NCBI GenBank assembly: GCA_900752785.1
Contig: CAADWP010000081.1
Location: 1 to 13,435 of the forward strand
Origin: an uncultured Ruminococcus sp.
GTDB lineage: Bacteria; Bacillota; Clostridia; Oscillospirales; Ruminococcaceae
Length of the DNA stretch: 13,435 nt
Reading direction: 5' to 3'
Positions 523 to 13,292 of this stretch are shown here, piece after piece. The first letter of the stretch is position 1. The number at the start of each line of letters is the position of its first letter. A program made the translations under genes and the position numbers. The notes under the pieces were generated by a model. That model was not told the DNA's origin. It worked only from the letters and a program-made list of their open reading frames with translations, and ran no database searches.

Positions 523-1812
523 CTACTTTTTTAATTTAATTTTTATTCCATCATCTTTCGGCAACAGTATTAACAACCAAATCAAAGAAAGCGCACGTGT
601 CGTATATATTGTATAAATTCTTGCCATAGAAAAAATCATAAATTGTATTAATATCAAATAACAAACAAGAGTACGCATATTCTTCTTTTTTATAAAATAC
701 ATATACGAAAGCATACAGAAATAACCAAATAAAAAACTGCCTAAGAATATACCAAACAAACCAAAATCATTATAAAAATTAAAAAATAATGTGCTGTATG
801 CATTCATTGTTACATGATCGCTGATCGGAACAAAAATTTCTAATTGTTGTTTAATATAGTTTATATCACCGAAAACAGGAGGAAATTTGATTCCAAGATA
901 ATTAAGAACAAAGAACACCGGATATAAAAAACCATATAGCGAAAAGAAGCCGTATGTTCTTATATCTGCAATTGGTTCATTCAAATGAAGATCAAAAAGT
1001 GTTATTCCTCCAGATAAATAAGCCAGCATATTATATAATAAATTTGCTTCCGATGTTTCGCTTCTTGCTTTTGTAATAATAATTATTACTACAAATAAAA
1101 GTGCGGCAAAAAGTGGTATACGCTTTAACCACTTTTTTACCTTATAAGATACTTTATTTTCTTTAAAAAACATTAACAATATAACTATAAAATAAAGAAT
1201 TAAAAATCCCCAAACAGCTCTTGAAACGCTGGAAATAGAATACAATGTTATCGAAGTTAACGCAAGAATTAAAAATTGTTTATTTCTATTACCTAAAAAT
1301 AATTCTACAGCAAACACTGGCGCAATCAAATATACACATGGTGCAACAAAATCGTCATGAATAAACTGACTCCAATTTCCACCTTTCAGGGTGCCCTCTC
1401 CCGATACGCCTGCAACGCCATGCATTAATCTAATACTGCCCCAGGAAAAGCCTCTTGATAAATATGAAGCGATTATTCCTAATCGATAAACCGAGTAAAT
1501 AATAATTATTACACATGCAATATTCAACAATTTATAATCTTTTATCTTCATGTCATAAATCATGTTGTTTTTGACTTTATGATGGGTAAATAAACAACAG
1601 AAACATCCTACACCAAAAGATACAAGACCCATTAATATAAATGCATATGTAGTTTGTTGAATCGCGGGTGCATTATCAAGTCTTAAACTTGCAAGAAATG
1701 TTATAATACACCAATATCCAAGAAACAATGTTCCGGGATTATAGATTCTTTTTGTTTTTAAAAAAAATTGTATCGCCAATACAATTGAAGTAATAATACA
1801 TAAATATTTCAT
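523..1812 (-). CDS. wzy: Wzy-like O-antigen / oligosaccharide repeat-unit polymerase
   Basis: A 429-residue multi-pass membrane protein with about 11-12 hydrophobic segments (roughly 3-18, 26-43, 54-76, 94-117, 156-173, 178-195, 198-216, 232-247, 284-304, 340-372, 381-399 and 405-418). Size, topology and a polar loop around residues 120-155 (GFSWGSIRLMHG...GGNWSQFIHDD) fit a repeat-unit polymerase that joins lipid-linked units outside the membrane. Wzy proteins share little sequence, so the call rests on topology and on wzx lying directly downstream. The ATG at 1810-1812 has GAGG 8 nt upstream. The gene is very AT-rich: 601-660 contains only 11 G+C in 60. The preceding 234-nt gap sets it apart from the upstream genes. 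Another polytopic polymerase or a membrane acyltransferase is less likely. Confidence 0.8.
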   Translation of the reverse strand: MKYLCIITSIVLAIQFFLKTKRIYNPGTLFLGYWCIITFLASLRLDNAPAIQQTTYAFILMGLVSFGVGCFCCLFTHHKVKNNMIYDMKIKDYKLLNIACVIIIIYSVYRLGIIASYLSRGFSWGSIRLMHGVAGVSGEGTLKGGNWSQFIHDDFVAPCVYLIAPVFAVELFLGNRNKQFLILALTSITLYSISSVSRAVWGFLILYFIVILLMFFKENKVSYKVKKWLKRIPLFAALLFVVIIIITKARSETSEANLLYNMLAYLSGGITLFDLHLNEPIADIRTYGFFSLYGFLYPVFFVLNYLGIKFPPVFGDINYIKQQLEIFVPISDHVTMNAYSTLFFNFYNDFGLFGIFLGSFLFGYFCMLSYMYFIKKKNMRTLVCYLILIQFMIFSMARIYTIYTTRALSLIWLLILLPKDDGIKIKLKK

Positions 1813-2046
1813 TTGTTGGTCCTCTCTGCCATTTTCATCACAATTTATCTTACACTTGAATCCGCAGAGTTAATTTATATAAAAGTGATATAAATCTGCT
1901 ATAATCTGATAAAACTATTATCTCCACATTTAAGCTTTTCTCCCATTTCGGTGAAAAGCTTAAAATTAAAAATTACTTTATAACTCTAAAAATGTTTGTT
2001 TGAGTTAAATTCGGCAGGGTCAGATTATATCTAAAATACACCATAA
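1813..2046. other. Longest internal intergenic gap, upstream of wzy
   Basis: This 234-nt, strongly AT-rich stretch separates the glycosyltransferase from wzy. It holds a perfect 12-bp inverted repeat (1929-1964), a weaker 6-bp one (TAACTC 1981-1986 with GAGTTA 2002-2007), and an imperfect tandem repeat on the minus strand (CAGATTATAG CAGATTTATA) near 1889-1908. I found no convincing sigma-70 promoter and no open frame worth calling. Confidence 0.6.
1929..1964 (-). repeat. Perfect 12-bp inverted repeat / RNA hairpin upstream of wzy
   Basis: TTTAAGCTTTTC (1929-1940) and GAAAAGCTTAAA (1953-1964) are exact reverse complements around a 12-nt loop. A CC/GG pair could form inside the loop. There is no U-run on the 3' side in either direction, so it is not a standard intrinsic terminator. 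An attenuator, an mRNA processing or stabilising element, or a protein site are all possible. Confidence 0.6.
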
Positions 2047-3195
2047 TTATATACATATATTCTCATAAACTTTTATAATCTCATTCACAACTCTCTTAAT
2101 TGAAAAGAAATCAATAGAATAACTATGTCCATTTTGAGCAATAATTTGAGACTGATTTTTATTTGATATTGCTTTAAATATCACATTTGCAAGTGCCTTA
2201 GAATCGTTTACTTCATATAAATAACCATTTTCACAATCTGTAATTATTTCAGGTGTTCCACCGCTATTCGCACCAATAGCCAGCATTCCTGCCATCATAT
2301 TTTCTATTGTTACCCGGCCAAAGGCTTCTCTTTTTGAACAAGTCAATCCTATATCATGTTGCCTTCTAAGCTCCAAAAGATTATCAGAATGTTCCATAAC
2401 AGAAATATGTTGTTTAAGACCATGCGTATCAATATAATTCATAATCTTATTTACATATTCTTTTGTCTCTCCTTGACCAATAATTGTCAAATAAATATTA
2501 TCTATACCTTTTTTAATTAAAATCTCAATAGCCTTGATCGCTGTAATTTGACCCTTTTGAGAAGAAATTCTTCCGGCTAACAAACAATGAACATTATCTT
2601 CCGCTAAAATTTTATGGTCTTGAATATCATATTTTTCTTGAGGAATACCATTATATATAACCTTTATACTTCTATTTATAATAGGCTCAAATTTATTTTT
2701 TACATCTTTGGATATCGCAATAACAGAATCTGCTTGAGAAACAAGTTTATATACATGCTTTTCACGAAAGAGCTTCTTACCAAGGTCAGCTTCCATAAAC
2801 TGCCTTATATGCCATACATATGGAATATTTAGCTTCTGTGCAATCTCTGCACCTATACCGCTGTCAAGACCATTTATATGAATAACATCAGGCTTATCGG
2901 CTTTTAAGTGTTGAATTATCTGTCTTTTTGAAAGCTTATTTCTCAAACTTTTTATAAAGAATTTAGGCTTAGTAAGAATATTCTTAACTTTTATATCCAT
3001 TCTCATTCCGTATAATGGAATTTTAATAAATTTAATCTTACTGTTAAGCATCTCATTGCTGATATTTTTTGTATTTGAGAGAACTACGCTGACTTCCATT
3101 CCACGATTTATCATTTCTTCAATGATATTATACATAGACAAAGTAGCTCCATCTTGATTTGTAAAACTATAATGTGCAAAAAAACAAACCTTCAT
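2047..3195 (-). CDS. GT4-family glycosyltransferase (GT-B fold)
   Basis: Retaining glycosyltransferase expected to add one sugar to the lipid-linked unit at the cytoplasmic membrane face; donor and acceptor are unknown. From the chosen start it has 382 residues. The N-terminal Rossmann half opens with MKVCFFAHYSF and the GATLSMYNIIEEMINRG helix (16-32), and has KPDVIHINGLDS at 101-112. The C-terminal half has LLAGRISSQKGQ (205-216) and the E-x7-E donor-binding motif EAFGRVTIE (290-298), followed by GANSGGTPEII. I use ATG at 3193-3195 rather than 3205-3207, because GGAGG (3201-3205) lies 5 nt before it and the upstream ATG has no site. It follows the CapA-like gene by 11 nt. It is the only non-initiating glycosyltransferase in the window, so others probably lie downstream. 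G+C is low (2401-2460: 14 of 60). Confidence 0.93.
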   Translation of the reverse strand: MKVCFFAHYSFTNQDGATLSMYNIIEEMINRGMEVSVVLSNTKNISNEMLNSKIKFIKIPLYGMRMDIKVKNILTKPKFFIKSLRNKLSKRQIIQHLKADKPDVIHINGLDSGIGAEIAQKLNIPYVWHIRQFMEADLGKKLFREKHVYKLVSQADSVIAISKDVKNKFEPIINRSIKVIYNGIPQEKYDIQDHKILAEDNVHCLLAGRISSQKGQITAIKAIEILIKKGIDNIYLTIIGQGETKEYVNKIMNYIDTHGLKQHISVMEHSDNLLELRRQHDIGLTCSKREAFGRVTIENMMAGMLAIGANSGGTPEIITDCENGYLYEVNDSKALANVIFKAISNKNQSQIIAQNGHSYSIDFFSIKRVVNEIIKVYENICI

Positions 3196-3200
3196 GCTCT

Positions 3201-3205
3201 CCTCC
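3201..3205 (-). promoter_or_regulatory. Ribosome binding site deciding the glycosyltransferase start
   Basis: GGAGG lies 5 nt before ATG 3193-3195. The first ATG of the frame (3205-3207) overlaps this site and the TAA of the upstream gene, and has no site of its own. Confidence 0.7.
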
Positions 3206-3206
3206 A

Positions 3207-4412
3207 TTAAATTTCATATTCCTTGCATATCTCAGGCACTGAACTTCCACAGAAACGTTGTTGTATAAACTGTACATCGCTTATTAATTTATTCTTCTCA
3301 TTATCTGCAAGTATCTTATAAAGGTCATATACAGGCCATACTGTAAGACTTCCATCTTTTGTCTCAACAATTTTAAGAATGCTGAACGTACATTTTACGG
3401 TCTTTCCGTTATCATCAAGATACAAATGATAACACACAGAATATTCAGGCTTAAGATCATGAAGCAAATAAACAGAACTCGGAGAAATGCTATAATTTCC
3501 GAGACAATAACAAACATGACTGCCGTCTATGATTTCGTGTTTCTGTACAACGTGCGGATGATTTGCAATTACATAATCTGCACCATAATTAACACAAAGC
3601 TGCGCGATATATTTTGCAAATTCACCGGGTTCAGCATTGAACTGACCTCCCATATGGGAACATACAATTACAATATCTGAATTTTCCTTAGCGGATTTTA
3701 TATCTCTTTCAAGAATATTATAGTATATTTCATTTTTATCTTCCTGATAAAGCACATCTACTCTTGAAACATTATATCTTCTATGGAGCAGCTTGTTTAT
3801 ACGCATCCTGTTTTCAGCAGTAATAAATGATGAAAGTTTCTTTTTGACATTTCCTATAATTCCTAAAGAACCTGATACCTTACCCTCAACTTTTTGAAGC
3901 CGATATGTCTGAGGCTTTATAAGATTAAGACAATAACGTTCATCTTCTGAAAGAATTATATTTGTTTCATGGGTATTTGTTCCATAGGTATAGGAAAGAA
4001 ATGCTATTCTTGTGCCGTTTATTTCTTTAATAAAATATCTGTTTGAATTTTCACTTTTATTAGTACCTGTAAAGTCTATCCCATAATGTTTAAGAACGTT
4101 TATTGTTCTGAAAAGACCTTCAGTACCTCTGTCAAGGGAATGATTTGTGGCTGTCGTCACCATATCTATACCGCTTTCAGCTAATGCTGCTGCAAAACTA
4201 TCGGGAGTATTGAAACAATAGATATGGTCGGTATATCCCCGTTCTTTTCCTGCAAATACTGTTTCAAGATTGCCTACTACATAATCTGATTCGGAAAAAA
4301 GAGATTTTGTTTTTTCAAACACCTTATTGAAAGTATCTCCCCTGTGTTTCATATAGCATTTCTGAAGAGGCTTTTCGCACATTATATCACCGATAAATGA
4401 TATTTTAGTCAT
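3207..4412 (-). CDS. CapA/PGA_cap family metallophosphatase-like protein without a membrane anchor
   Basis: A 401-residue protein of the CapA/PgsA family, calcineurin-like proteins often linked to poly-gamma-glutamate or capsule export; the reaction is not established. Visible motifs: GDIM (8-11), GNLETVF (47-53), TATNHSLDRG (87-96), CSHMGGQF (251-258, where many relatives have HWG-E), ANHPHVVQ (283-290) and YCLGNY (302-307). D9, N48, H91, H253, H285 and H287 are candidate metal ligands. Residues 145-232 form an insertion between core strands. Unlike typical CapA/PgsA, there is no signal peptide or transmembrane helix: the first strand starts at residue 2, suggesting a cytoplasmic protein. 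Its ATG overlaps the end of the preceding ATP-grasp gene by 8 nt. PgsB/PgsC partners are absent, so a poly-gamma-glutamate role is not supported. Confidence 0.88.
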   Translation of the reverse strand: MTKISFIGDIMCEKPLQKCYMKHRGDTFNKVFEKTKSLFSESDYVVGNLETVFAGKERGYTDHIYCFNTPDSFAAALAESGIDMVTTATNHSLDRGTEGLFRTINVLKHYGIDFTGTNKSENSNRYFIKEINGTRIAFLSYTYGTNTHETNIILSEDERYCLNLIKPQTYRLQKVEGKVSGSLGIIGNVKKKLSSFITAENRMRINKLLHRRYNVSRVDVLYQEDKNEIYYNILERDIKSAKENSDIVIVCSHMGGQFNAEPGEFAKYIAQLCVNYGADYVIANHPHVVQKHEIIDGSHVCYCLGNYSISPSSVYLLHDLKPEYSVCYHLYLDDNGKTVKCTFSILKIVETKDGSLTVWPVYDLYKILADNEKNKLISDVQFIQQRFCGSSVPEICKEYEI

Positions 4413-5499
4413 TATATACTTCCCTCATTATTTTCTCAGTATCTCCGCCAAAAAGAGGTCCGTTACACATCTGATGGAAATCAAGTTCGCCATGTCCCAT
4501 ATTTGCTTCTATAAGAACGGGTACACCGTCTTCGGTTACAGAAATATCCCATGAAACCATGCGTATATCTGGAATCATAAGAGCTGCACGCTTCACAAGA
4601 GAAATTATCTTATCAAATGAAGGAACAGTAACAGTTTCAAAATGGAGGCCGCTGTTCGGGTGACAATTGAATCTATCCCCCTTTGTATTATAAGCAACAC
4701 TTTTCAGTATACCATTTTCACATACACCGCAGAAAATTCCTCCGCTGCTTGCATTATCAACACGCGCACCGGAAACACCCATTCTTACAATTACAGAATA
4801 TATCTTAACTTCATTATCCTTAAGCAGGGATAACACACGTATTGAGTTTACAGAGCTTTCATTAAGCTTAGCGAGTTCTTTGTGCTGAACGATAGCCCTT
4901 TGAACAATAATATCCCTTTGCTTTTTTATTTTATTAACAGATTCATAAAACTCTTTTAAAAATTTTTCAGCAGAACTGTCAAATTCAATAAATACAACGT
5001 CTTTTCCGCCGCTTGATCCATCAGCCTGTTTTATAACAATATTCTTTTCTGACAAGAGAATTTTATTAAGCTGTTTACTATCAAGAATATGATAATCATT
5101 TGAAAGCCATATACCATTAATTCGGAAAGCAACAGGATATGGTTGACTGATTTCCGGAAACATACGGGGAAAGTAAGTTTTATTTTCTAAAACTGCCGCT
5201 TTCTTTAAATTGTTGAAATATGTATCAATAACTTTGACGTAGATATCATCAGGTATATATTCCTTATGAAATTCACCAGTTACAGAATAATAATAGTTAT
5301 GAAAAAGAGGATTCAGCTTAAAGTACGGCTTGTAAAAATTAACAGCTTCCTTTATCTGCTCTTGTGACATTTTTTTGTCAATATGTGGATGTATTCTTTG
5401 TTTAATTCTTATAACAATAGCTTCATTTCGAGCCTTTTGTTGTAATGAATAATCAAAATCTCGTTTTTTCTTTAAAATATTTGTTATAATATTCGCCAT
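4405..5499 (-). CDS. Sugar-transfer associated ATP-grasp protein (ATPgrasp_ST type), third copy
   Basis: A 364-residue ATP-grasp protein resembling the family found in polysaccharide loci (Pfam ATPgrasp_ST). Such enzymes are predicted to activate a carboxylate with ATP and join it to an amine; no product can be named. An alpha-helical N-terminal region (1-110, with YIPDD at 81-85) precedes the ATP-grasp core. Core motifs: NIVIKQADGSSGG (153-165, K157 the probable ATP lysine), KLNESSVNSIRVLS (211-224), MGVSGARVDNASSGG (240-254) and metal-site IEANMGHGE (330-338, E331 and N333). YIPDD, NESS-N-IRV and ARVDN recur in the protein at 7766-8857, so these two belong to one subfamily. ATG 5497-5499 follows the previous stop by 6 nt with AGGAG about 12 nt upstream. 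It overlaps the CapA-like gene by 8 nt, which suggests coupled synthesis. Confidence 0.87.
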   Translation of the reverse strand: MANIITNILKKKRDFDYSLQQKARNEAIVIRIKQRIHPHIDKKMSQEQIKEAVNFYKPYFKLNPLFHNYYYSVTGEFHKEYIPDDIYVKVIDTYFNNLKKAAVLENKTYFPRMFPEISQPYPVAFRINGIWLSNDYHILDSKQLNKILLSEKNIVIKQADGSSGGKDVVFIEFDSSAEKFLKEFYESVNKIKKQRDIIVQRAIVQHKELAKLNESSVNSIRVLSLLKDNEVKIYSVIVRMGVSGARVDNASSGGIFCGVCENGILKSVAYNTKGDRFNCHPNSGLHFETVTVPSFDKIISLVKRAALMIPDIRMVSWDISVTEDGVPVLIEANMGHGELDFHQMCNGPLFGGDTEKIMREVYND

Positions 5500-5505
5500 A
5501 ATTTA

Positions 5506-6510
5506 TTACAACTCCTTTTTCTTTGCAATTTCTTTAAGAAGAGGCTCATAAAGCGGCCACTTGCCTACTTGGTCTTCAATCTGAGTGACATCAGGGTCTG
5601 CTCCGGGATTTCCCTCAATAAGAACGATCTGACCGTTTTCCTTTATCATAACGTCCCAGCCGACGTAACGAACTTCGGGATGAACCATTGCAGCTTTTTT
5701 TACTGTATTGATTATTTCACTCCAATGCGGTACTTTAAATCCGACGATCTGCTTTTTTGAATCAGGGTGAAGCACATATCTGTTCCAATTGCGGTCAACA
5801 CCCGTCGTATAAACAATACCGGTTTTTATATCTATGAGTGCAGCTATTCCCTCATGATGAAAATTATCTGCAAATTTGCCTTTTCTGCTTATTCTAAGCA
5901 CAGATGCCATTACTCTTACAGTATTATCAGCACATACAAGCGTTACCATACGCAACGAATTAACTGCTGTATCATTAAATGCCGCAAGCTGCGGAGACTG
6001 TACAAGTATCTCCTCTAAAAGAGTTTTATTCTTCACACACTTTTTATAAAAAGCATCCGGCTTCTTAATATCAGCTCTTTTTACTATTTCAATTCCCCTG
6101 CCAAACATTCCATCGGGAGATTTGCAGAAATAAGCTTCATGCGCATAGAAAAAACGCATAAATTCTTCTTTTGTACAATATGCTGAATCTACCCAGTCTC
6201 TGCCAAGATACTGAGAAAATTCCTTATTGAAAAGAGGTTTCTGATCGAAAAGTCTTCTTGATTTAGGATCGTTGCAGGTTTTTATAATTTGAAGAAGCTT
6301 TCCGTGATTTATAAACTTGTTGCGCTCAGCACGTTTTTTATAATAAAAACGGTACTGAACGTAATCAATAAGCTCTGTATCATATCTGAATTTTTCCCAT
6401 AAAAAGTCAGCCGTAATAAACGCTTTTGTCCAGACAGACGCATCAGGAACGACATCTCTTTCAATGTCGGCATAAAATCTTTTAAATTTCTGTAAAATAT
6501 TTTCAGCCAT
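5506..6510 (-). CDS. Sugar-transfer associated ATP-grasp protein, divergent second copy
   Basis: A 334-residue ATP-grasp protein, the most divergent of three related copies. Core motifs: YFCKSPDGMFGRGIEIV (127-143, K130 the likely nucleotide lysine), AAFNDTAVNSLRMVT (176-190), KGKFADNFHHEGIAALID (210-227), VRYVGWDVMI (280-289) and the metal site LIEGNPGADPD (297-307, E299 and N301). Where its sisters have ARVDN followed by a Gly/Ser-rich loop, this one has FADNFHHEG, so its substrate pocket probably differs. The start is chosen at ATG 6508-6510. The open frame extends to a TTG at 6549, but that has no ribosome site, whereas GGAAAG (6519-6524) lies 8 nt before the ATG. A 131-nt gap with a strong hairpin separates it from the opine dehydrogenase-like gene. 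The family is clear; the substrate is unknown. Confidence 0.85.
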   Translation of the reverse strand: MAENILQKFKRFYADIERDVVPDASVWTKAFITADFLWEKFRYDTELIDYVQYRFYYKKRAERNKFINHGKLLQIIKTCNDPKSRRLFDQKPLFNKEFSQYLGRDWVDSAYCTKEEFMRFFYAHEAYFCKSPDGMFGRGIEIVKRADIKKPDAFYKKCVKNKTLLEEILVQSPQLAAFNDTAVNSLRMVTLVCADNTVRVMASVLRISRKGKFADNFHHEGIAALIDIKTGIVYTTGVDRNWNRYVLHPDSKKQIVGFKVPHWSEIINTVKKAAMVHPEVRYVGWDVMIKENGQIVLIEGNPGADPDVTQIEDQVGKWPLYEPLLKEIAKKKEL

Positions 6511-6595
6511 AGCAAATTCTTTCCGGTTTAAATACCAATCTAAAATCAATACAGAATATTTTCTTTAATATCTGTATTATCCATTTACCACTTCT

Positions 6596-6637
6596 TTTCA
6601 AAATCTTACTGCGCCTAATCAGCACAAGATTTTGAAA
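6596..6637 (-). repeat. Perfect 12-bp inverted repeat between the opine dehydrogenase-like and ATP-grasp genes
   Basis: TTTCAAAATCTT (6596-6607) and AAGATTTTGAAA (6626-6637) are exact reverse complements with an 18-nt loop. TGC (6610-6612) and GCA (6622-6624) can extend the stem inside the loop. In the reading direction of the operon no U-run follows, so full termination is unlikely. A T-rich run follows only on the plus strand. It may be an attenuator or a transcript processing or stability element. Confidence 0.6.
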
Positions 6638-6641
6638 TTTC

Positions 6642-7745
6642 TTATTTATCTTCCAGTATTTTATGAATATTTTCAATTCCGAGACGTTCGGGAGTTCTGC
6701 CGTTTTCACGGAAATCAATGCCAAGTGCAGCGCTTGCTATATTAATCAGAGATGTTGTAATCGGAGTTTTGACATCAAGAGATTTTCCAAGCGATTCAAG
6801 CATAACAAGTCCTTGAGGCACGTCCTCTGTAATATATCTTGAATTAACGTTTACAGGGCCTTTTGCTCTTGTCGGCATAGCCGCATATCCGAAAAATACT
6901 TCCTTTGCGTCAAGTTCATCATGCAGAGAATTACGGAATTTGCATGCTTCAACATAAGGCAAACGTTCAAATCCCATTTTTTCAAGAATATCCATTTTCT
7001 CTGCGTCAAGTTTTTCAAGCACGTTCCATGCGTGTTCTGTAAATGAACGATGATACATACAGAAATCCTTGCCCATAGCGTCGATCATGGGAATAGCAAG
7101 GATAGAACCGATAGTATGAACTATCATATTCGGATTGTGCAGAGCCGCACCGACAACATTATTCATATAATGAAACGGGAAACCAAGCTTATCAAGTTTT
7201 TCCTTTGCATATTCAAGATTTGCGGAAGGATAAACTCCCAAAGGATTACGTACATTTCTGAAACCGACCTTAAATCTGCCGGGTTCCATAATTCGTCCGT
7301 CAATGAATGAACTCTGCGCTTCAACAATTGTAAGCTTCTTATCTCCGCAGTATTTAAGCATATATGCTGTTGAAAAATATCCGGGATTAATAAGAACTAT
7401 CTGACCGTCAACAAGATGCTCAGCCATTCTCTTTATGAGCTGTTCATGATAGTTTGTCTGAATATAAATAATAATAACATCCATATCAGAAATCACAGAT
7501 AAATCTCTTGTAACATTTGAGATATAACCTGTTTTCTCGACTGTTTCCAGATCCTGCGGATTCATTGAACCGTTTTCTCCGAAATCCATGAGTACCATTT
7601 TTCCGTTATTCTTCTGAAGATAATCAAAATTATCATCGTGCATTGCATTCGATGTTTTTACAAGAGTTACATCAAGTCCTCTGTAAGCCATATCGCCTGC
7701 TACCGCACAACCGCCGTTCCCTGCTCCTACAACTGCAATTTTCAT
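6642..7745 (-). CDS. Opine dehydrogenase family NAD(P)-dependent reductase
   Basis: A 367-residue member of the octopine/nopaline dehydrogenase family. These enzymes reductively condense the amino group of an amino acid with a 2-keto acid, or run the reverse, giving a secondary-amine dicarboxylate (an opine). The N-terminal Rossmann domain has VVGAGNGGCAVAGDMAYRG (5-23) with the dinucleotide glycines, and INPGYFSTA at 119-127. The C-terminal helical domain has ALHNPNMIVHTIG (201-213); H203 or H210 is the likely catalytic histidine. FGYAAMPTRAKGP (285-297) and NSRYITEDVPQGL (301-313) are typical substrate-domain stretches. ATG 7743-7745 has AAGGAG 10 nt upstream and lies 20 nt after an ATP-grasp gene. 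Placement among ATP-grasp ligases suggests its product is a building block for the glycan. Another N-carboxyalkyl reductase, or a relative of 2-keto acid reductases, cannot be excluded. Confidence 0.87.
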   Translation of the reverse strand: MKIAVVGAGNGGCAVAGDMAYRGLDVTLVKTSNAMHDDNFDYLQKNNGKMVLMDFGENGSMNPQDLETVEKTGYISNVTRDLSVISDMDVIIIYIQTNYHEQLIKRMAEHLVDGQIVLINPGYFSTAYMLKYCGDKKLTIVEAQSSFIDGRIMEPGRFKVGFRNVRNPLGVYPSANLEYAKEKLDKLGFPFHYMNNVVGAALHNPNMIVHTIGSILAIPMIDAMGKDFCMYHRSFTEHAWNVLEKLDAEKMDILEKMGFERLPYVEACKFRNSLHDELDAKEVFFGYAAMPTRAKGPVNVNSRYITEDVPQGLVMLESLGKSLDVKTPITTSLINIASAALGIDFRENGRTPERLGIENIHKILEDK

Positions 7746-7765
7746 AAATTCTTTTCTCCTTTTCG

Positions 7766-8857
7766 TCAGTTCTGACTGTTAGCCAAAGTCTTTTTTATAT
7801 ATACTTCTTCAAGAACTTCTTCAGTAAGTTCGCCAAAAGTAGGTCCGAAAGTTATCTGATTTGAACCAGGGCATACATTATACTCAATAAATACAGGCTC
7901 ACCATCTGAATCAACACTGAAATCCCAGCCAATAAGCTTAAAATGTGCAAGTTTTCTGTGTTCTCTCTTAACAATATCAATTATTTCCTCAAATGCAGGA
8001 ACCTTTATCCCCTTAAATACAACGCCCTCGTTTGTCTGTTCAACCCATTCAGCCTTTCGATTTACACCCTTTTCGTTAAGAGAACCATCCGGCTGTATAA
8101 CGCATGCGTAACCTCCTGCACCGACATTATCAACGCGCGCACCTTTCGCACCTACACGAAGAATAGTTGAAAGGATATGAACCTTACCCTTAAAAAAGAA
8201 CGATACAACCCTTATCGTGTTCAGTGAAGATTCATTGAGACTTGCAAGTACAGGGTGCTGTTTTACGGCTTCCTGAGCAATGAAATTAGCTCCCATTTCA
8301 CGAAAAGTTTTCATTATTTCTTTTGGAGTTATGTCTTCTTTTTCAAAGAATCTGATAAGTCTTCCTTCGCCGCTGTCTATTGACGGCTTGATAAGGAAAG
8401 TCTCCTCTTTCAGACACAGTCTGCAAGCCTCCTTAGCCGATATCGGCTGAAAATCAGGAGTATAAAAAACACCCGAGACATTCATAACGACTGTTCTTGG
8501 ACGCTTCAGCTCCCTGAACCATACAGAGTGCATACATTTATCCTCGCCGAAACGACGAAACTGAGAATTGCTGAAATAAGGAACAATTTCTCCGTACCAA
8601 AGGTCATCGGGAATATATCTCGGATCAGGCTCGTGAGTCCTGTCCCAAAAAATCTGATACCACATTTTATCGGGTTTTAATCCAAAACGTTTCCAGAAAG
8701 GAACAACGATCTCTTCATACTCTTTTGTACATTCATAACCGCCGTTCATTCTTTTAAGACGAATTCTTGCTTTTTTCTGATATGACAGCTTTCTGTAAAT
8801 TGATTCCGCCTTAAAATTAACCGAATCCAATTTTTTACGAAGACTACTTCTTCCCAT
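7766..8857 (-). CDS. Sugar-transfer associated ATP-grasp protein, first copy
   Basis: A 363-residue ATP-grasp protein of the polysaccharide-linked ATPgrasp_ST type, predicted to form an amide or similar bond from a carboxylate at the cost of ATP. The basic, helical N-terminal part (1-110) includes RYIPDDLW (80-87). The core shows TFLIKPSIDSGEG (153-165, K157), ASLNESSLNTIRVVSF (205-220), VGAKGARVDNVGAGGYACV (235-253), LIGWDFSV (308-315) and FIEYNVCPGS (323-332, E325 and N327 as metal ligands). It is most like the protein at 4405-5499. ATG 8855-8857 has GGTGG 7 nt upstream. A 77-nt gap separates it from the CarB-like ATP-grasp gene, and the opine dehydrogenase-like gene follows 20 nt downstream, so these two may act together. 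Confidence 0.87.
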   Translation of the reverse strand: MGRSSLRKKLDSVNFKAESIYRKLSYQKKARIRLKRMNGGYECTKEYEEIVVPFWKRFGLKPDKMWYQIFWDRTHEPDPRYIPDDLWYGEIVPYFSNSQFRRFGEDKCMHSVWFRELKRPRTVVMNVSGVFYTPDFQPISAKEACRLCLKEETFLIKPSIDSGEGRLIRFFEKEDITPKEIMKTFREMGANFIAQEAVKQHPVLASLNESSLNTIRVVSFFFKGKVHILSTILRVGAKGARVDNVGAGGYACVIQPDGSLNEKGVNRKAEWVEQTNEGVVFKGIKVPAFEEIIDIVKREHRKLAHFKLIGWDFSVDSDGEPVFIEYNVCPGSNQITFGPTFGELTEEVLEEVYIKKTLANSQN

Positions 8858-8934
8858 TTTATAACCACCATTCTCAATAATAAATAATATTAATCAGCAC
8901 GATTTGATTTTCGCCTGTTATCTGATCCGTAATT

Positions 8935-9897
8935 TTATCTTACAAGTAATTCATTATATTTCATCATATATCTGCCTTCAGAATAATTTCCTATATCGGC
9001 AGCATTAGCCTTTCCAAGTAAATTATTCACAATCAGTTTCATATGATCGCAGCCGCATTCATAAGCATGAGGGTAGCCGCCGCCAAAACGCGGATTCACT
9101 TCCGAAATATAATATTCACCATTAATATCGAAAATATCAATGTCGATCTGCCCGCGATATCCCGCTTCTTTTACAAATTTCCGAATCAATTCAAAAAGTT
9201 TCTCATCTTTAAAAGATACAGCTTTATCTGTTTCTCCTGCTCTCATGGTGATTTTCTTCTTTGTAAAAACAGAAACAACCTCTCCGGACATCATATCAAT
9301 ATAAACGTCTGCTCCGATTTCCTGACCATTGAGAAACTGCTGAATCATCATCCCCTCTCTCTGTTCATATAAGAAACGAGCTGTTTTTTCGTTATCCGCT
9401 TTAGAAATTGCAATACTTGCACTACCTTTTGAAGGCTTTACAAAAACCGGATATGAAACACCAGAGGCTTCAAAATCATCAAAATTCATAAACGACCTTG
9501 CGCATTTGTAATCATGCTCAACAAGCCATGTATACATCTTATACTTATCAAGGCTCATTTCACAAAGTTCATAGGAAGAACCGATAACCATAACATTAAG
9601 TTCTTCAAATTTGCCGGCGTTTTCGGCAAGCAGACTAAGCTCAGGATCAATAAGGCTAAGAACCGCAGCAACATTTTCCTGTTTGCAAATATCAAATATA
9701 GCGTCAATATATCCCTCGTCAGTCATGCAAGGTACTTGATAAAATTTATCAGCCTCATAAACCGCCGGAGCAATATCACTCATATCGGTTGCAATTACAT
9801 TTCCGATCCTGCTTCCGTCATCATTTGTAAGAGCCTTCTTAAAGTATTGAACCACTTTATTTCTTGTACCGGCGCTCAAAATCAATATATTTTTCAT
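8935..9897 (-). CDS. CarB/PylC-like ATP-grasp carboxylate-amine ligase
   Basis: A 320-residue stand-alone ATP-grasp enzyme resembling one half of a carbamoyl-phosphate synthase large subunit, and unlike the other three ATP-grasp proteins here. The pre-ATP-grasp Rossmann domain (1-110) starts MKNILILSAGTRNKVV and has VLSLIDPELSLLAEN (79-93). The core has SYPVFVKPSKGSASI (148-162), MMIQQFLNGQEIGADVYID (183-201) and metal-site SEVNPRFGGGYPHAYE (265-280, E266 and N268). Free-standing relatives usually ligate an amino acid or a carboxylate in specialised pathways. It overlaps the PLP-enzyme gene by ATGA (9894-9897) with AGGA 7 nt upstream, implying tight coupling. A plausible inference is that it uses the PLP enzyme's product, but substrates are not readable. 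Confidence 0.88.
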   Translation of the reverse strand: MKNILILSAGTRNKVVQYFKKALTNDDGSRIGNVIATDMSDIAPAVYEADKFYQVPCMTDEGYIDAIFDICKQENVAAVLSLIDPELSLLAENAGKFEELNVMVIGSSYELCEMSLDKYKMYTWLVEHDYKCARSFMNFDDFEASGVSYPVFVKPSKGSASIAISKADNEKTARFLYEQREGMMIQQFLNGQEIGADVYIDMMSGEVVSVFTKKKITMRAGETDKAVSFKDEKLFELIRKFVKEAGYRGQIDIDIFDINGEYYISEVNPRFGGGYPHAYECGCDHMKLIVNNLLGKANAADIGNYSEGRYMMKYNELLVR

Positions 9898-10832
9898 TCT
9901 GCATTCCTTCCCTGTAAGTAATCAAAAAACAATGGCGTACCGCCTGTATGAATAAAAAGAATATTGAGCTTATTCACATGATTGACAGAGATGTAATTTT
10001 TCATTCCGCTGAATGCTTTGCCGACATATGTAGCATCCATCGGAATCCCATACATAACCATCATTTCTCTGATAGCAGCATTGATCTCTTCATTTGCCTT
10101 GCTATATCCATTTCCGATATAATCGTCAATAAAAATTGTTTTATCTTCTATTTCATTTATTGAAACATCAGTTCCGCAGCTTCTAAGATATTCATTAATA
10201 CTATTGATAACTACCTGTCGGCCTCTTGGATTTTTCCTGGCAATACTTATTCCTACGACATTTCTTTCGTCTTTATGAAGCAATTGACCGCAAACCAGAC
10301 CGGCGTGTGTTGTTCCTGTACCCGAAGCAAAAAAAATATAATCAAATTTTATATGATTGTCTGTTTCATATTGAACGATCTCATTATAGCAATCAACGTA
10401 GGCCTGTGTTCCAAGATTGCCATGTCCGCCTCCTTCAATAAAATAAGGCTTTTTTCCGGAATTTCTTAATTCAAAAAGTTTTCGTTCTATAGTTTCATGA
10501 ACATTTTCAACACTTACAACAATAATTTCAGCGCCGAACATTTCCATTAACTGACTGTTGAACGTAGGAATCGACGCTTCCTGAGGGGAAATAATATAAC
10601 AAGGCATATGCCTGCCGGCAGCCATATTTGAAATAATACGGCAATGATTTGAACTGCTGCTTCCATATGTTACAATGCAATCATAACCTCCGCCGTCTAT
10701 TTCATCAAAAAAATTAAGTGCCTTACGCGCCTTATTTCCGCCAAAGGAAACGGGGATCAGATCATCTCTTTTAATAAATATTCTATTATCGTATTCATCA
10801 TCATAAACATGATATAAAGGCGTACCGATCAT
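9894..10832 (-). CDS. Fold-type II PLP enzyme, D-cysteine desulfhydrase / ACC deaminase family
   Basis: A 312-residue PLP enzyme of the tryptophan synthase-beta fold. FIKRDDLIPVSFGGNKARK (19-37) carries the PLP lysine K34. TYGSSSSNHCR (55-65), GGGHGNLGTQAYVDC (134-148), ASGTGTTHAGLV (169-180) and FIHTGGTP (293-300) form the cofactor site. At the position where true ACC deaminases have Tyr-Glu, this protein has Y269-V270, and it has HTGG where ACC deaminases have HLGG. It is therefore closer to D-cysteine desulfhydrase-like enzymes, and the real substrate may be another amino acid. The start is ATG 10830-10832, 8 nt after GGAGG (10841-10845). The frame opens at a TTG at 10847, but that TTG overlaps the ribosome site. 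The ATG shares a base with the TAA of the GNAT gene (TAATG). Confidence 0.88.
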   Translation of the reverse strand: MIGTPLYHVYDDEYDNRIFIKRDDLIPVSFGGNKARKALNFFDEIDGGGYDCIVTYGSSSSNHCRIISNMAAGRHMPCYIISPQEASIPTFNSQLMEMFGAEIIVVSVENVHETIERKLFELRNSGKKPYFIEGGGHGNLGTQAYVDCYNEIVQYETDNHIKFDYIFFASGTGTTHAGLVCGQLLHKDERNVVGISIARKNPRGRQVVINSINEYLRSCGTDVSINEIEDKTIFIDDYIGNGYSKANEEINAAIREMMVMYGIPMDATYVGKAFSGMKNYISVNHVNKLNILFIHTGGTPLFFDYLQGRNAE

Positions 10833-11329
10833 TACGATTTCCTCCAATCAAATGATGATACGGAATAATAATACCTATCAACTGACTTTCCGCGATTAAC
10901 TGCGGAATCCTTGAATATCTCGCCCTTTATAAAACCGCATTTTTCAAATAATTTTTGTGCCGGGATATTATCCACTTCCGTATATAAATAAATCTCAGAA
11001 AGCTTCCGTTCAATAAAAGCATAATCAAGTAAAAGCAGTGTTGCTTTTTTAGCAATACCCTTTCCTTTGAAATCTGCTTCACCCATAGTTACATAGTATT
11101 CGGCTTTTCCATTCTTAATATTGAGCAATCCGATTATTCCAACAGGAGCGCCGTCATATTCGATAACCGCATCGTACCTGTCTGTCAAGTCCTTTATTTT
11201 AAAAAACCATGCTTTTGTACCTTCTTTTGTCAGCGGAAGATCATAATGCAGGTATTGATTATTTTCAGGATCATTGATCCACTTTACTTTATTTGGAATA
11301 TCTTTTTCTTCAAATTTCCGAATACTCAC
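10832..11329 (-). CDS. GNAT-family N-acyltransferase
   Basis: A 165-residue RimJ/RimL-type GNAT protein. It starts SIRKFEEKDIPNKVKWIND and has the acetyl-CoA pyrophosphate loop around VTMGEADFKGKGIAKKAT (about residues 81-98). LYTEVDNIPAQKLFEKCGF (115-133) is the usual GNAT motif B. Context favours acylation of an amino sugar, as PseH does for a 4-amino sugar nucleotide, because an aminotransferase and an initiating transferase lie just upstream; a protein or free amino-acid substrate is possible. Two GTG starts are available, at 11336-11338 and 11327-11329. I prefer the second because AGGA lies about 11 nt upstream of it, while the first is only 2 nt from that site. It overlaps the preceding gene by 20 nt and touches the next by TAATG. 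Confidence 0.85.
   Translation of the reverse strand: MSIRKFEEKDIPNKVKWINDPENNQYLHYDLPLTKEGTKAWFFKIKDLTDRYDAVIEYDGAPVGIIGLLNIKNGKAEYYVTMGEADFKGKGIAKKATLLLLDYAFIERKLSEIYLYTEVDNIPAQKLFEKCGFIKGEIFKDSAVNRGKSVDRYYYSVSSFDWRKS
10841..10845 (-). promoter_or_regulatory. Ribosome binding site deciding the PLP-enzyme start
   Basis: GGAGG lies inside the end of the GNAT gene, 8 nt before ATG 10830-10832. It fixes that ATG as the start in place of the TTG at 10847. Confidence 0.75.
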
Positions 11330-11960
11330 GGATTCCACTTTCCTTTACATCCTTTCTTGCATTATCCAATCTGCCAACTTTAATCTGACTTCCAACCTGA
11401 ATATCAGAACGTTTTATTACTTTATACAAAGTCAAAAATAAAATTTTCACATCAAAAATAAAACTGCATTTTTCAATATATTCAAGGTCATACGCAAACC
11501 TCTGTTCCCAAGAATCAATTGCGTTTCTTCCGTTAATCTGTGCCCAGCCGGTAAGTCCCGGACGAATATCATGACGACGCCTTTCATTTTCATAATAATA
11601 CGGCAGATATTCTACGAGAAGAGGTCTCGGCCCTACAATGCTCATGTCGCCATTTAAAATATTTAAAAGTTCAGGAAGCTCATCAAGAGAAGTCGAACGC
11701 AGAAAACGTCCGTATTTATTGAGCCTGATATCATCGGGAAGAAGATTACCGTCTTTATCCTTTTTATTACTCATTGTGCGGAATTTAATAAGCTTGAAAA
11801 TCTTTTCATCTTTACCCGGACGATCCTGAGTAAAAAAAGGATTGCCTTTCATAAAAACGGTTCCCAAAATAATAAGTATCAAAAAAACAGGAAGGAGAAT
11901 AATTAAAACACACAAAGACGCAAAAAAATCTATAATTCTTTTGAAAAAATCAGCGTACAT
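11310..11960 (-). CDS. PglC/EpsL-type initiating sugar phosphoglycosyl transferase
   Basis: A small monotopic phosphoglycosyl transferase of 216 residues. It moves a sugar-1-phosphate from a UDP-sugar to undecaprenyl phosphate at the inner membrane face and so starts the repeat unit. One hydrophobic re-entrant helix lies at 10-36, followed by FTQDRPGKDEKIFKLIKFRTM (43-63), then STSLDELPELLNILNGDMS (89-107) with the catalytic Asp-Glu pair at D93-E94, then IVGPRPL (108-114) and RPGLTGWAQINGR (133-145). Length matches the minimal PglC form rather than long WbaP/WcaJ proteins. ATG 11958-11960 has AGGAG (11969-11973) 8 nt upstream, so I prefer it to the TTG one codon earlier. It overlaps the aminotransferase gene by 11 nt. 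That pairing, as in PglE/PglC and EpsN/EpsL, suggests an N-acetylated 4-amino-6-deoxy sugar as first residue. Confidence 0.94.
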   Translation of the reverse strand: MYADFFKRIIDFFASLCVLIILLPVFLILIILGTVFMKGNPFFTQDRPGKDEKIFKLIKFRTMSNKKDKDGNLLPDDIRLNKYGRFLRSTSLDELPELLNILNGDMSIVGPRPLLVEYLPYYYENERRRHDIRPGLTGWAQINGRNAIDSWEQRFAYDLEYIEKCSFIFDVKILFLTLYKVIKRSDIQVGSQIKVGRLDNARKDVKESGIREYSEI

Positions 11961-13179
11961 CAAAACAACTCCTAATCATTTCAATAATAACATTCTGCTG
12001 CTCGGGTGTCATTTTATTGTCTGACGGCAAACACAAACCTCGGTTGAAGATGTCCATTCCGACATCACAGACATCGCCCGCAATATAAGCATTTGTCCTT
12101 GCTCTGCCGTTTCCCTGACGTGTAACAAATCCATTATTTCTGTAGATTGGCTGCATATGCATCGGCTTCCAGATAGGACGCCCCTCTGCATTCAATGAGG
12201 CTATTTTTTCAAGTATTTCCGTTGGACAACTTTTGCCACTCTCACTGATATAAAGTGCATCGCTTTCTCCACGAACCTGTCTGCACATTGCATCCGGATC
12301 TATAATCAAGCAGGAAAGCCAGTAATTTGGAATACTGTTCTTCTCATCAAACGGATTCATACTCACAGGAAGTCCCTTGAAGCCTGCCTTGTATCTCTCA
12401 TAAATTGCCTTTTTCTGAGCAATATGTTCTTCAAGATAAGGTATCTGACCACGAACAACTCCGGCTATTACATTTGACATTCTATAGTTGTAACCGATTT
12501 CTTCATGCTGATACCATGCAGCCGCTTCACGGCTCTGTGTAGACCATTTTCTTACTTTTTCAGCAGCCTCTTTATTATCAGTCAGCAGCATACCGCCGGA
12601 AGAACCGGTTATAATCTTGTTTCCGTTAAAGGAAATTGCATTATAATCACCAAATCTTCCTGTTTGAATGCCCTTATATGAAGCCCCGAAGGACTCGGCA
12701 GCATCCTCAATAATAACTGCATTATGCTTTGCACAAATATCCTTTATTTCATCAAGCTTACAAGGAACACCGTACAGATGAGCTACAACCACAGTCTTAA
12801 CATCAGGATAAATTTCAAATGCTTTTTCAAGAGCAACAGGATCCATGTTCCATGTATCATATTCCGTATCAATAAAAACAGGAACTCCACCCTCATAAAT
12901 TACAGGATTAACAGTAGCCGCAAATGTCATATCTGAACAAAAAACCTTGTCGCCCTGTTTAATACCTGCAAGTTTCACAGCCATGTGTAAGGCAGAAGTT
13001 CCACTTGAAAGCGCAACTGCATATTTGCAGCCGATTTTCTCAGCAATCATTCTTTCAGATTCATTAATATTTTCACCGACAGTTGACATCCAGTTTGTGT
13101 CATACGCTTCTTTCACATACTTCAGCTCATCACCATGCATAGTAGGTGAAGAAAGCCATATCTTGTTATCAAATTTCAT
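11950..13179 (-). CDS. DegT/DnrJ/EryC1 (PglE/EpsN-like) PLP sugar aminotransferase
   Basis: A 409-residue PLP enzyme that aminates a keto sugar nucleotide. Closest in style are PglE/EpsN enzymes, which make UDP-4-amino-4,6-dideoxy-GlcNAc from the 4-keto sugar. Motifs: ALSSGTSALHMAVKLAG (56-72, PLP phosphate cup), IIEDAAESFGASYKG (156-170) and SFNGNKIITGSSGGML (183-198) with PLP lysine K188; RPIWKPMHMQPIYRNNGF (334-351) is typical near the C-terminus. Residues about 299-331 form an insertion before that motif. The frame opens 7 codons earlier at 13200, but AGGAG (13187-13191) sits 7 nt before the inner ATG and inside the extension, so the inner ATG is the start. The matching 4,6-dehydratase is not in the window. 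It is the first gene behind the promoter and overlaps the next by 11 nt. Confidence 0.93.
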   Translation of the reverse strand: MKFDNKIWLSSPTMHGDELKYVKEAYDTNWMSTVGENINESERMIAEKIGCKYAVALSSGTSALHMAVKLAGIKQGDKVFCSDMTFAATVNPVIYEGGVPVFIDTEYDTWNMDPVALEKAFEIYPDVKTVVVAHLYGVPCKLDEIKDICAKHNAVIIEDAAESFGASYKGIQTGRFGDYNAISFNGNKIITGSSGGMLLTDNKEAAEKVRKWSTQSREAAAWYQHEEIGYNYRMSNVIAGVVRGQIPYLEEHIAQKKAIYERYKAGFKGLPVSMNPFDEKNSIPNYWLSCLIIDPDAMCRQVRGESDALYISESGKSCPTEILEKIASLNAEGRPIWKPMHMQPIYRNNGFVTRQGNGRARTNAYIAGDVCDVGMDIFNRGLCLPSDNKMTPEQQNVIIEMIRSCFDVR

Positions 13180-13186
13180 GTTATTT

Positions 13187-13191
13187 CTCCT
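13187..13191 (-). promoter_or_regulatory. Ribosome binding site deciding the aminotransferase start
   Basis: AGGAG lies 7 nt before ATG 13177-13179. The upstream in-frame ATG (13198-13200) has no site of its own. Confidence 0.75.
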
Positions 13192-13292
13192 AACTTGCAT
13201 TCCAATTAAAATTCCGGTTCAAATTTATGTTTAACTTTATAATTTCTGCTCAATACAGCATAAAAAACATATTCCATAACGTACACATTAGT

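What the first reader, a model, noticed from the sequence alone, without database searches (positions are those of the whole stretch)
4405..13179. Candidate system for decorating a polysaccharide with an opine or unusual amino acid through several ATP-grasp ligases
Seen: one minus-strand gene run holds a sugar aminotransferase, an initiating PglC-type transferase, a GNAT, a PLP amino-acid enzyme, four ATP-grasp enzymes, an opine dehydrogenase-family reductase and a CapA-like protein, with Wzy and Wzx following. Known: ATP-grasp enzymes commonly make carboxylate-amine bonds, opine dehydrogenases make N-carboxyalkyl amino acids, and some Gram-negative O-antigens (for example in Providencia) carry such residues amide-linked to sugars. 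Inference: the PLP enzyme and the reductase supply an unusual amino acid or opine, and the ligases attach it, perhaps stepwise with other amino acids, to the 4-amino sugar or to a uronic acid. One tension is that the GNAT might instead acetylate the sugar amine, leaving a different acceptor.
Basis: partly seen in the sequence, partly recalled or inferred. Interest (0 to 1): 0.8.

Follow-up and report, generated by a model that had tools for sequence, protein, structure and literature searches.

The report
Opine-and-ligase cassette decorating a bacterial polysaccharide
A bacterial gene run for building a surface sugar polymer carries a recurrent pair, an opine-making enzyme next to amide-bond ligases, which probably hangs an unusual amino acid on the polymer; the product itself has not been seen.

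Summary
In detail: one minus-strand run encodes a DegT aminotransferase, PglC-type transferase, GNAT, PLP enzyme (PALP), four ATP-grasp proteins (one CarB-like, three ATPgrasp_ST), an opine dehydrogenase (ODH), PGA_cap protein, GT4, Wzy candidate and Wzx. ODH has an opine-dehydrogenase fold (first 14 PDB matches) and the lowest dN/dS of eight cassette genes (0.019). One correction: PALP does not go with ODH. It goes with GNAT (fused in both orders) and the CarB-like ligase, also without ODH; ODH goes with ATPgrasp_ST or TupA-like ligases, mostly without PALP. Two decoration modules are joined here: A probably acylates a 4-amino sugar, B probably makes an opine and amide-links it. No chemistry or acceptor was tested. 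Opine-bearing O-antigens are known; I found no gene set for them in the open papers searched.

The parts
11950..13200 (-). DegT/PglE/LegC-like sugar aminotransferase (in-frame ATG also at 13179)
   Evidence: Pfam DegT 1.7e-82; best NCBIfam LegC family 326.5 bits, below its cut-off of 420
11310..11963 (-). PglC-type initiating phosphoglycosyl transferase
   Evidence: Pfam Bac_transf 2.8e-61
10832..11338 (-). GNAT acetyltransferase, PseH-like (module A)
   Evidence: Pfam Acetyltransf_3 8.1e-19; PseH 44.6 bits, below cut-off 93.1; fused to PALP in L012, L017, L022 and to PglC in L004
9894..10847 (-). PALP fold-type-II PLP enzyme, D-cysteine desulfhydrase/ACC-deaminase family (module A)
   Evidence: Pfam PALP 1.6e-33; PDB 4d97 1.5e-31; K39, S66-N67-H68, Y274 invariant in 14 aligned
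8935..9897 (-). PylC-like_N / PRK12767 ('CarB-like') ATP-grasp ligase (module A)
   Evidence: NF009406 490.7 bits over cut-off 271; in the same locus as PALP in 7 of 7 ODH loci with PALP
7766..8857 (-). ST1, ATPgrasp_ST ligase directly upstream of ODH (module B)
6642..7745 (-). ODH, opine dehydrogenase (module B)
   Evidence: PF02317 2.3e-37; PDB 1bg6 2.8e-32; fold; dN/dS 0.019 against L001
5506..6549 (-). ST2, ATPgrasp_ST ligase downstream of ODH
   Evidence: PF14397 1.5e-41
4405..5499 (-). ST3, ATPgrasp_ST ligase
   Evidence: PF14397 6.3e-45
3207..4412 (-). CapA-like PGA_cap protein
   Evidence: PF09587 3e-64; weak MslH epimerase match 59 bits, cut-off 700; relative fused to a Mur ligase in L003
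2047..3207 (-). GT4 glycosyltransferase
   Evidence: Pfam Glycos_transf_1 2.5e-27; no DNA match in L001
523..1812 (-). Wzy-like polymerase candidate
   Evidence: no Pfam match; homologues after GT4 in L025 and L017
3..476 (-). Wzx flippase, cut by window edge
   Evidence: Pfam Polysacc_synt 7.6e-14

Best explanation
A Wzx/Wzy-type surface-polysaccharide locus, probably of a Ruminococcus-like clostridium, that carries two decoration modules. Module A (DegT, PglC, GNAT, PALP, CarB-like ligase): a UDP-4-amino sugar is made, a PALP-derived amino acid is amide-linked to an amine by the CarB-like ATP-grasp enzyme, GNAT caps an amine with acetyl, and PglC loads the sugar on undecaprenyl phosphate. 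Module B (ST1, ODH, then ST2/ST3): ODH condenses a 2-keto acid with an amino acid, using NAD(P)H, to give an N-(1-carboxyalkyl)amino acid (an opine); ST1 activates one of its carboxylates as acyl phosphate and joins it to an amine of the glycan precursor, and ST2/ST3 add further residues or use a uronic-acid carboxylate. GT4, Wzx and Wzy finish the polymer. SHOWN by computation: gene content, folds of ODH and ST1, conserved residues, module co-travel, fusions, purifying selection. INFERRED: every substrate, the order of steps, the acceptor sugar, and the role of CapA.
For: ODH fold: the first 14 PDB matches are all opine dehydrogenases (1bg6, octopine, yersinopine, pseudopaline and staphylopine dehydrogenases); H210 and D308 align with H202 and D297 of 1bg6 and are invariant in the 33 aligned rows. 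ATP-grasp within 400 bp of ODH in 55 of 78 loci (upstream 52, downstream 23, both sides 20), ST-type upstream in 39 of 78, TupA-like within 400 bp in 20 of 78. 83 of 102 over-cut-off ATPgrasp_ST genes of 50 ODH genomes lie in the ODH-centred loci, 0.94 Mb of about 118 Mb (rounded sizes summed). A TupA-like domain is a proven amide ligase on a capsule uronic acid in C. jejuni Cj1438 (PMC11800379 passages). The ST1 model resembles D-Ala-D-Ala ligase and RimK. Cassette DegT-PglC-GNAT-PALP-CarB-ST1-ODH in L001, L004, L012, L017, L022; without a DegT hit in L025 (near a contig end); without DegT and GNAT hits in L024. An opine on a 4-amino sugar is a known glycan structure (P. alcalifaciens O35, reference title seen in PMC10609480).
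Against: No substrate was tested. 21 of 78 ODH loci have no ATP-grasp gene of the four kinds searched in the fetched flank, and 23 none within 400 bp; many are short contigs, but L006, L014, L016, L023, L044, L067, L069 and L075 are not, and the single neighbours that I annotated at L067, L069, L073 and L075 are general genes. In a clade of 19 tree rows (isolate names suggest anaerobic digesters; my reading) ST-ODH, often ODH-ST-ODH, lies without hits to the window's DegT, PglC, CapA, GT4, Wzy or Wzx, so the pair may act on a small molecule or another envelope polymer; only one flanking gene there was annotated (L032, Na/Pi cotransporter). Only one glycosyltransferase is in the window, and no gene for the 4,6-dehydratase that DegT needs.
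Confidence: 0.6

Rival explanations
1. ODH acts on the glycan itself: it reductively alkylates the free amine of an amino sugar or of an amino acid already attached by an ATP-grasp ligase, so the N-carboxyalkyl group is built on the lipid-linked or nucleotide-linked precursor and the next ligase uses the new carboxylate.
For: ODH has a ligase gene within 400 bp on both sides in 20 of 78 loci, and is doubled around one ligase (ODH-ST-ODH) in L021, L032, L038, L051, L061 and L065 (in L065 the ST frame is split in two).
Against: Known opine dehydrogenases of this fold use free amino acids or small metallophore precursors (recalled; structures listed). No docking was done.
Confidence: 0.2
2. ODH is a 2-keto acid reductase making a hydroxy acid (as ketopantoate reductase or D-mandelate dehydrogenase do), which ST1 then amide-links, as the ATP-grasp protein PglB2 goes with the glyceramido sugar in Neisseria.
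For: D-mandelate dehydrogenase and ketopantoate reductase follow from rank 15 of the fold search; PglB2 (ATP grasp/phosphoglycosyl transferase) is responsible for the glyceramido sugar (PMC11130364 passages).
Against: Pfam Octopine_DH at 2.3e-37 against ApbA at 1.6e-4, below its cut-off; the His-Asp pair aligns with 1bg6.
Confidence: 0.1
3. PALP and ODH form one pathway like SbnA/SbnB (a PLP enzyme builds an N-linked diacid and the dehydrogenase cuts it oxidatively to diaminopropionate); SbnA/SbnB chemistry is recalled.
For: Both genes are in the same run here and in 7 of 78 ODH loci.
Against: The two genes are separable both ways; the PALP belongs to the D-cysteine desulfhydrase family, not that of SbnA (recalled).
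Confidence: 0.05
4. The ligases and CapA make a poly-gamma-glutamate- or teichuronopeptide-like side chain, and ODH supplies a capping residue.
For: A PGA_cap protein is fused to a Mur ligase in L003, and a Mur-ligase protein follows the PGA_cap gene in L002; these two hold the closest ODHs outside L001 (81 and 80% identical), with TupA-like and UDP-glucose-dehydrogenase-family genes beside them.
Against: No Mur ligase or TupA is in the window; in L001 a UDP-glucose dehydrogenase follows Wzx, but the window ends inside Wzx.
Confidence: 0.15

Closest known systems
O-antigens with amide-linked opines: Providencia alcalifaciens O35 (alanopine derivative of 4-amino-4,6-dideoxyglucose), P. rustigianii O14 (N-epsilon-carboxyethyl-lysine)
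   Same: Expected product class: opine joined to a surface polysaccharide (a passage and a reference title in PMC10609480).
   Different: Gram-negative O-antigens; no paper seen assigns an opine dehydrogenase and ligase to them, and I did not compare their gene clusters.
Campylobacter jejuni Cj1438 C-terminal TupA-like ATP-grasp amidoligase
   Same: ATP-grasp amide ligase on a capsule sugar; TupA-like relatives lie beside ODH in 20 of 78 loci.
   Different: The window has ATPgrasp_ST, not TupA; Cj1438 adds serinol- or ethanolamine-phosphate to glucuronic acid; no opine enzyme is mentioned in the passages seen.
Neisseria PglB / PglB2
   Same: A phosphoglycosyl transferase coupled to either an acetyltransferase or an ATP-grasp domain (PMC11130364 passages); here the slot after PglC holds GNAT or, in L024 and L112, an ATP-grasp gene.
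   Different: The acetyltransferase here is a GNAT; L112 has a GNAT on the other side of PglC as well and L114 has neither in the slot, so the swap is not clean; PALP and ODH have no counterpart.
Staphylopine, pseudopaline and yersinopine dehydrogenases
   Same: Same fold and, expected, the same reaction class.
   Different: 13-16% identity in the fold alignments; their genes lie in metallophore loci (recalled).
Poly-gamma-glutamate CapA/CapB
   Same: PGA_cap protein, with a Mur-ligase partner in relatives L002 and L003.
   Different: No CapB-like Mur ligase found in the window.

Membership tests
NAD(P) opine dehydrogenase (Octopine_DH) family | Octopine_DH alpha-helical domain over curated cut-off | tested here: met
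   128.8 bits against cut-off 30
NAD(P) opine dehydrogenase (Octopine_DH) family | whole-protein fold of opine dehydrogenases | tested here: met
   pLDDT 90.5 model; first 14 PDB hits are opine dehydrogenases
NAD(P) opine dehydrogenase (Octopine_DH) family | catalytic His-Asp pair (role recalled) | tested here: met
   H210/D308 align with H202/D297 of 1bg6, invariant in 33 rows
NAD(P) opine dehydrogenase (Octopine_DH) family | reductive condensation of keto acid and amino acid | not testable with these tools
   needs an enzyme assay
ATPgrasp_ST carboxylate-amine ligases (ST1-ST3) | PF14397 over cut-off and conserved ATP-grasp residues | tested here: met
   111.6, 142.9 and 154 bits, cut-off 31.4; two Lys in 86 of 87 rows, Arg, Asp and E-x-N in 87 of 87
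ATPgrasp_ST carboxylate-amine ligases (ST1-ST3) | amide-bond formation on a glycan precursor | not testable with these tools
   needs an enzyme assay
D-cysteine desulfhydrase / ACC deaminase | over curated cut-off of a named enzyme model | tested here: not met
   CuyA 189.1 of 450 bits, ACC_deam_rel 167.6 of 289.4, ACC deaminase 118.7 of 392: in the superfamily, not a named enzyme
D-cysteine desulfhydrase / ACC deaminase | Glu after the active-site Tyr, as in the ACC deaminase 1f2d (its importance is recalled) | tested here: not met
   1f2d has Y-E, query Y-V (Y274); D-cysteine desulfhydrase 4d97 and also 1j0a, deposited as ACC deaminase, have Y-T
TupA / teichuronopeptide synthesis | TupA-like ATP-grasp in the locus | tested here: not met
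   none in the window proteins scanned; beside ODH in 20 of 78 relatives
Opine-substituted O-antigens | opine residue in the polymer | not testable with these tools
   needs chemical analysis
Wzx/Wzy polysaccharide pathway | initiating transferase, flippase and polymerase in one locus | tested here: inconclusive
   PglC and Wzx by Pfam; Wzy by position and homology only

The most novel reading that the evidence does not exclude
Alternating pseudo-peptide synthesis on a glycan: ATP-grasp ligases and an opine dehydrogenase act in turn on the same lipid- or nucleotide-linked sugar, so that each reductive N-carboxyalkylation by ODH creates a new carboxylate for the next ligase. This would be a template-free way of growing opine-containing side chains on capsules, spread among Firmicutes as an exchangeable module, with the ODH-ST-ODH version in other clostridia building a free or envelope-bound product of the same kind.
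Probability: 0.15. Interest if true: 0.82.

Novelty: new variant of a known kind. Interest (0 to 1): 0.6.

Why it matters
Opine residues in bacterial polysaccharides are known chemically, but the open-paper searches made here showed me no gene set for making and attaching them. If right, an ODH beside an ATPgrasp_ST or TupA-like gene is a genome-readable sign of opine-decorated surface glycans in Firmicutes, and it gives defined two-enzyme assays. It also splits off a second module (GNAT-PALP-CarB-like ligase) whose PALP one source names 'D-cysteine desulfhydrase' (P0128 and P0149), a name that its context makes doubtful.

Tried and rejected
Own genome: none held for the window. 'PALP plus ODH make one product' rejected because they separate both ways. 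'ODH is catabolic' rejected for the window's clade by context, left open for the basal group of the midpoint-rooted tree (11 rows, 9 without ATP-grasp). 'GNAT and the extra ATP-grasp gene (c10) replace each other after PglC' kept only as a tendency: L112 has c10 there but a GNAT on the other side of PglC, L114 has neither in that slot. PALP is not always followed by a CarB-like gene: of the six family-sample PALP genomes I looked at three in wide context; G346 and G350 have the CarB-like neighbour, G461 has a GT2 and a c10 ATP-grasp instead; G044, G495 and G401 were not looked at. The 350-aa protein in PALP's place in L066 looks to me by eye like an aminotransferase-type PLP protein, but Pfam, NCBIfam and PDB searches gave nothing of the kind. 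ST1's substrates could not be read from the fold: the listed matches are general ATP-grasp enzymes. Literature: no paper held 'opine dehydrogenase', 'ATP-grasp' and 'polysaccharide' together, nor 'carboxyethyl', 'lysine', 'O-antigen' and 'opine'; (20 of 42 papers listed; 20 of 39; 12 of 12; 12 of 44; 8 of 515; 10 of 24; 20 of 29; 12 of 1,870) I saw listings only, apart from six papers searched for passages: PMC10609480, PMC2824669, PMC11130364, PMC5560731 (no 'carboxyethyl', 'opine' or 'ATP-grasp' in its main text), PMC11800379 and PMC11641403 (no 'ATP-grasp' or 'carboxyethyl'). The library leaves out most subscription journals. The order-sample ODH genomes are not independent of the 78 loci: G001 and G016 hold L001 and L017, and G185's contig has the length of L020's contig (22,259). 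Of the 78 loci, 50 went into; one in-range hit in G005, with an internal stop, was not counted as inside. The gene callers used on the loci are home-made scripts, so gene lists beyond profile hits are approximate.


Full report
What is there. The window holds thirteen consecutive minus-strand genes. In transcription order: DegT aminotransferase, PglC-type transferase, GNAT, PALP, a PylC-like/CarB-like ATP-grasp ligase, ST1 (ATPgrasp_ST), ODH (Octopine_DH), ST2, ST3 (both ATPgrasp_ST), a PGA_cap protein, GT4, a Wzy candidate and a Wzx cut by the edge. No own genome is held. The closest relative found is L001, from an uncultured Ruminococcus sp. MAG: eleven of the thirteen genes match there at 72-91% DNA identity per aligned stretch, while GT4 and the Wzy candidate have no DNA match, the pattern that one expects of an exchangeable surface-antigen locus (inference).

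ODH belongs to the opine-dehydrogenase family. Pfam Octopine_DH 2.3e-37; best PDB sequence match the N-(1-D-carboxyethyl)-L-norvaline dehydrogenase 1bg6, 2.8e-32. The predicted model (pLDDT 90.5) has opine dehydrogenases in the first 14 places of the PDB search; D-mandelate dehydrogenase and ketopantoate reductases follow. H210 and D308 align with H202 and D297 of 1bg6 and are invariant in the 33-row alignment; that these are the catalytic pair is recalled. Against L001, ODH shows the lowest dN/dS of the eight genes compared (0.019; the others 0.055-0.166).

The survey. One scan of species genomes with an ODH alignment gave 78 loci, the list being capped (90 relatives found, the best 80 kept). 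Profiles of four ATP-grasp kinds (ST, TupA-like, CarB-like and a fourth, 'c10') find such a gene within 400 bp of ODH in 55 of 78 loci (upstream 52, downstream 23, both sides 20), and within the fetched flank in 57 of 78. ST lies upstream within 400 bp in 39 of 78, TupA-like on either side in 20 of 78. In 50 genomes taken from these loci, 83 of 102 over-cut-off ATPgrasp_ST genes, in 36 genomes, lie inside the ODH-centred loci, which are 0.94 Mb of about 118 Mb (rounded sizes summed). As background, 73 of 295 genomes of the order of G001 have an over-cut-off ATPgrasp_ST gene; a close ODH (over 60% identity) is in 3 of 295, each with ATPgrasp_ST beside it, but these three are not independent of the 78. 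In 200 genomes of the family of G044 an ODH at 1e-60 or better is in one, G044 itself. So the gene is sporadic. Against: 21 of 78 loci have none of the four kinds in reach, partly through short contigs, partly for good. In the ODH tree (79 rows, midpoint root) a basal group of 11 rows has 9 without ATP-grasp; the one neighbour annotated at each of L067, L069, L073 and L075 is a sigma factor, GrpB, a MacB/FtsX permease and a phosphoglycerate mutase. A clade of 19 rows has ST-ODH or ODH-ST-ODH without hits to the window's sugar genes.

Two modules. PALP and the CarB-like ligase occur together in 7 of the 78 ODH loci, always both (L001, L004, L012, L017, L022, L024, L025). GNAT is there in six of these seven: as its own gene (L001, L025), fused to PALP (L012, L017, L022) or fused to PglC (L004); L024 has an ATP-grasp gene in that slot. 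Among the 120 listed PALP homologues (of 7,791 found) 15 also carry GNAT domains. In L116 the fusion has the opposite order, PALP first, beside a CarB-like gene, a DesI-like DegT and a flippase, with no PglC hit in the 16 kb. PALP beyond 1e-60 is in 5 of 295 order genomes, next to a CarB-like gene in 5 of 5, with PglC in the fetched flank in 4 of 5; G303, G131 and G063 of these have no ODH match. In L114 the order is PglF-like dehydratase, a glyoxalase-family gene, DegT, PglC, PALP, CarB. In L118 a more distant PALP (40% identity) has a GT2 and a c10 ATP-grasp gene after it, not a CarB-like one. In L066 the PALP-CarB pair is replaced by a 350-aa protein of unknown family and a weakly CarB-like protein (57 bits, cut-off 218). 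So GNAT-PALP-CarB works with 4-amino-sugar genes, independently of ODH, and ST-ODH is a second unit.

Mechanism. Inference from these facts and known chemistry. A TupA-like ATP-grasp domain forms amides on capsule glucuronic acid (Cj1438; PMC11800379 passages). Neisseria PglB and PglB2 couple a phosphoglycosyl transferase to an acetyltransferase or an ATP-grasp domain and give diacetylbacillosamine or the glyceramido sugar (PMC11130364 passages). Alanopine on a 4-amino sugar and carboxyethyl-lysine are known in Providencia O-antigens (reference title and passage in PMC10609480). I therefore take module A to acylate a 4-amino sugar with a PALP-derived amino acid and acetyl, and module B to make an opine and amide-link it. 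Which carboxylate, which amine and which keto acid are unknown. CapA may edit or help polymerise amino-acid residues: a relative is fused to a Mur ligase (L003) and it has a weak match to a lasso-peptide epimerase model (59 bits, cut-off 700); this is a lead only.

Novelty. The product class is known; the ODH-ATP-grasp module and its spread I did not find described in the searches, of which most gave capped listings and which leave out most subscription journals. I rate it a new variant of a known kind.

Noticed in passing
L003:3540-6920, L003:13665-16697, L002:13628-15382: BspA-type leucine-rich repeats (LRR_5) are fused to an ATPgrasp_ST protein and to Mur-ligase proteins of the same polysaccharide loci; odd for enzymes expected in the cytosol.
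   Followed up: no
L021, L032, L038, L051, L061, L065: ODH-ST-ODH triplets in clostridia, without hits to the window's sugar genes: two opine dehydrogenases round one ligase suggest an unknown product.
   Followed up: partly
L006:8996-11994: In a Bacilli MAG the ODH lies between UppP/BacA and an undecaprenyl-phosphate translocase-like gene, a cell-envelope setting without ATP-grasp.
   Followed up: partly
L082: A DegT very like the window's (665 bits) is followed directly by a distant opine dehydrogenase relative (27% identity) in an order-sample genome.
   Followed up: no
window 523-3207 against L001: GT4 and the Wzy candidate have no DNA match in L001 while both flanks match: a likely serotype exchange.
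   Followed up: partly
L001:11166-11672: L001 has an extra hexapeptide-repeat protein (169 aa) between ODH and ST2; the window has no such gene there.
   Followed up: no
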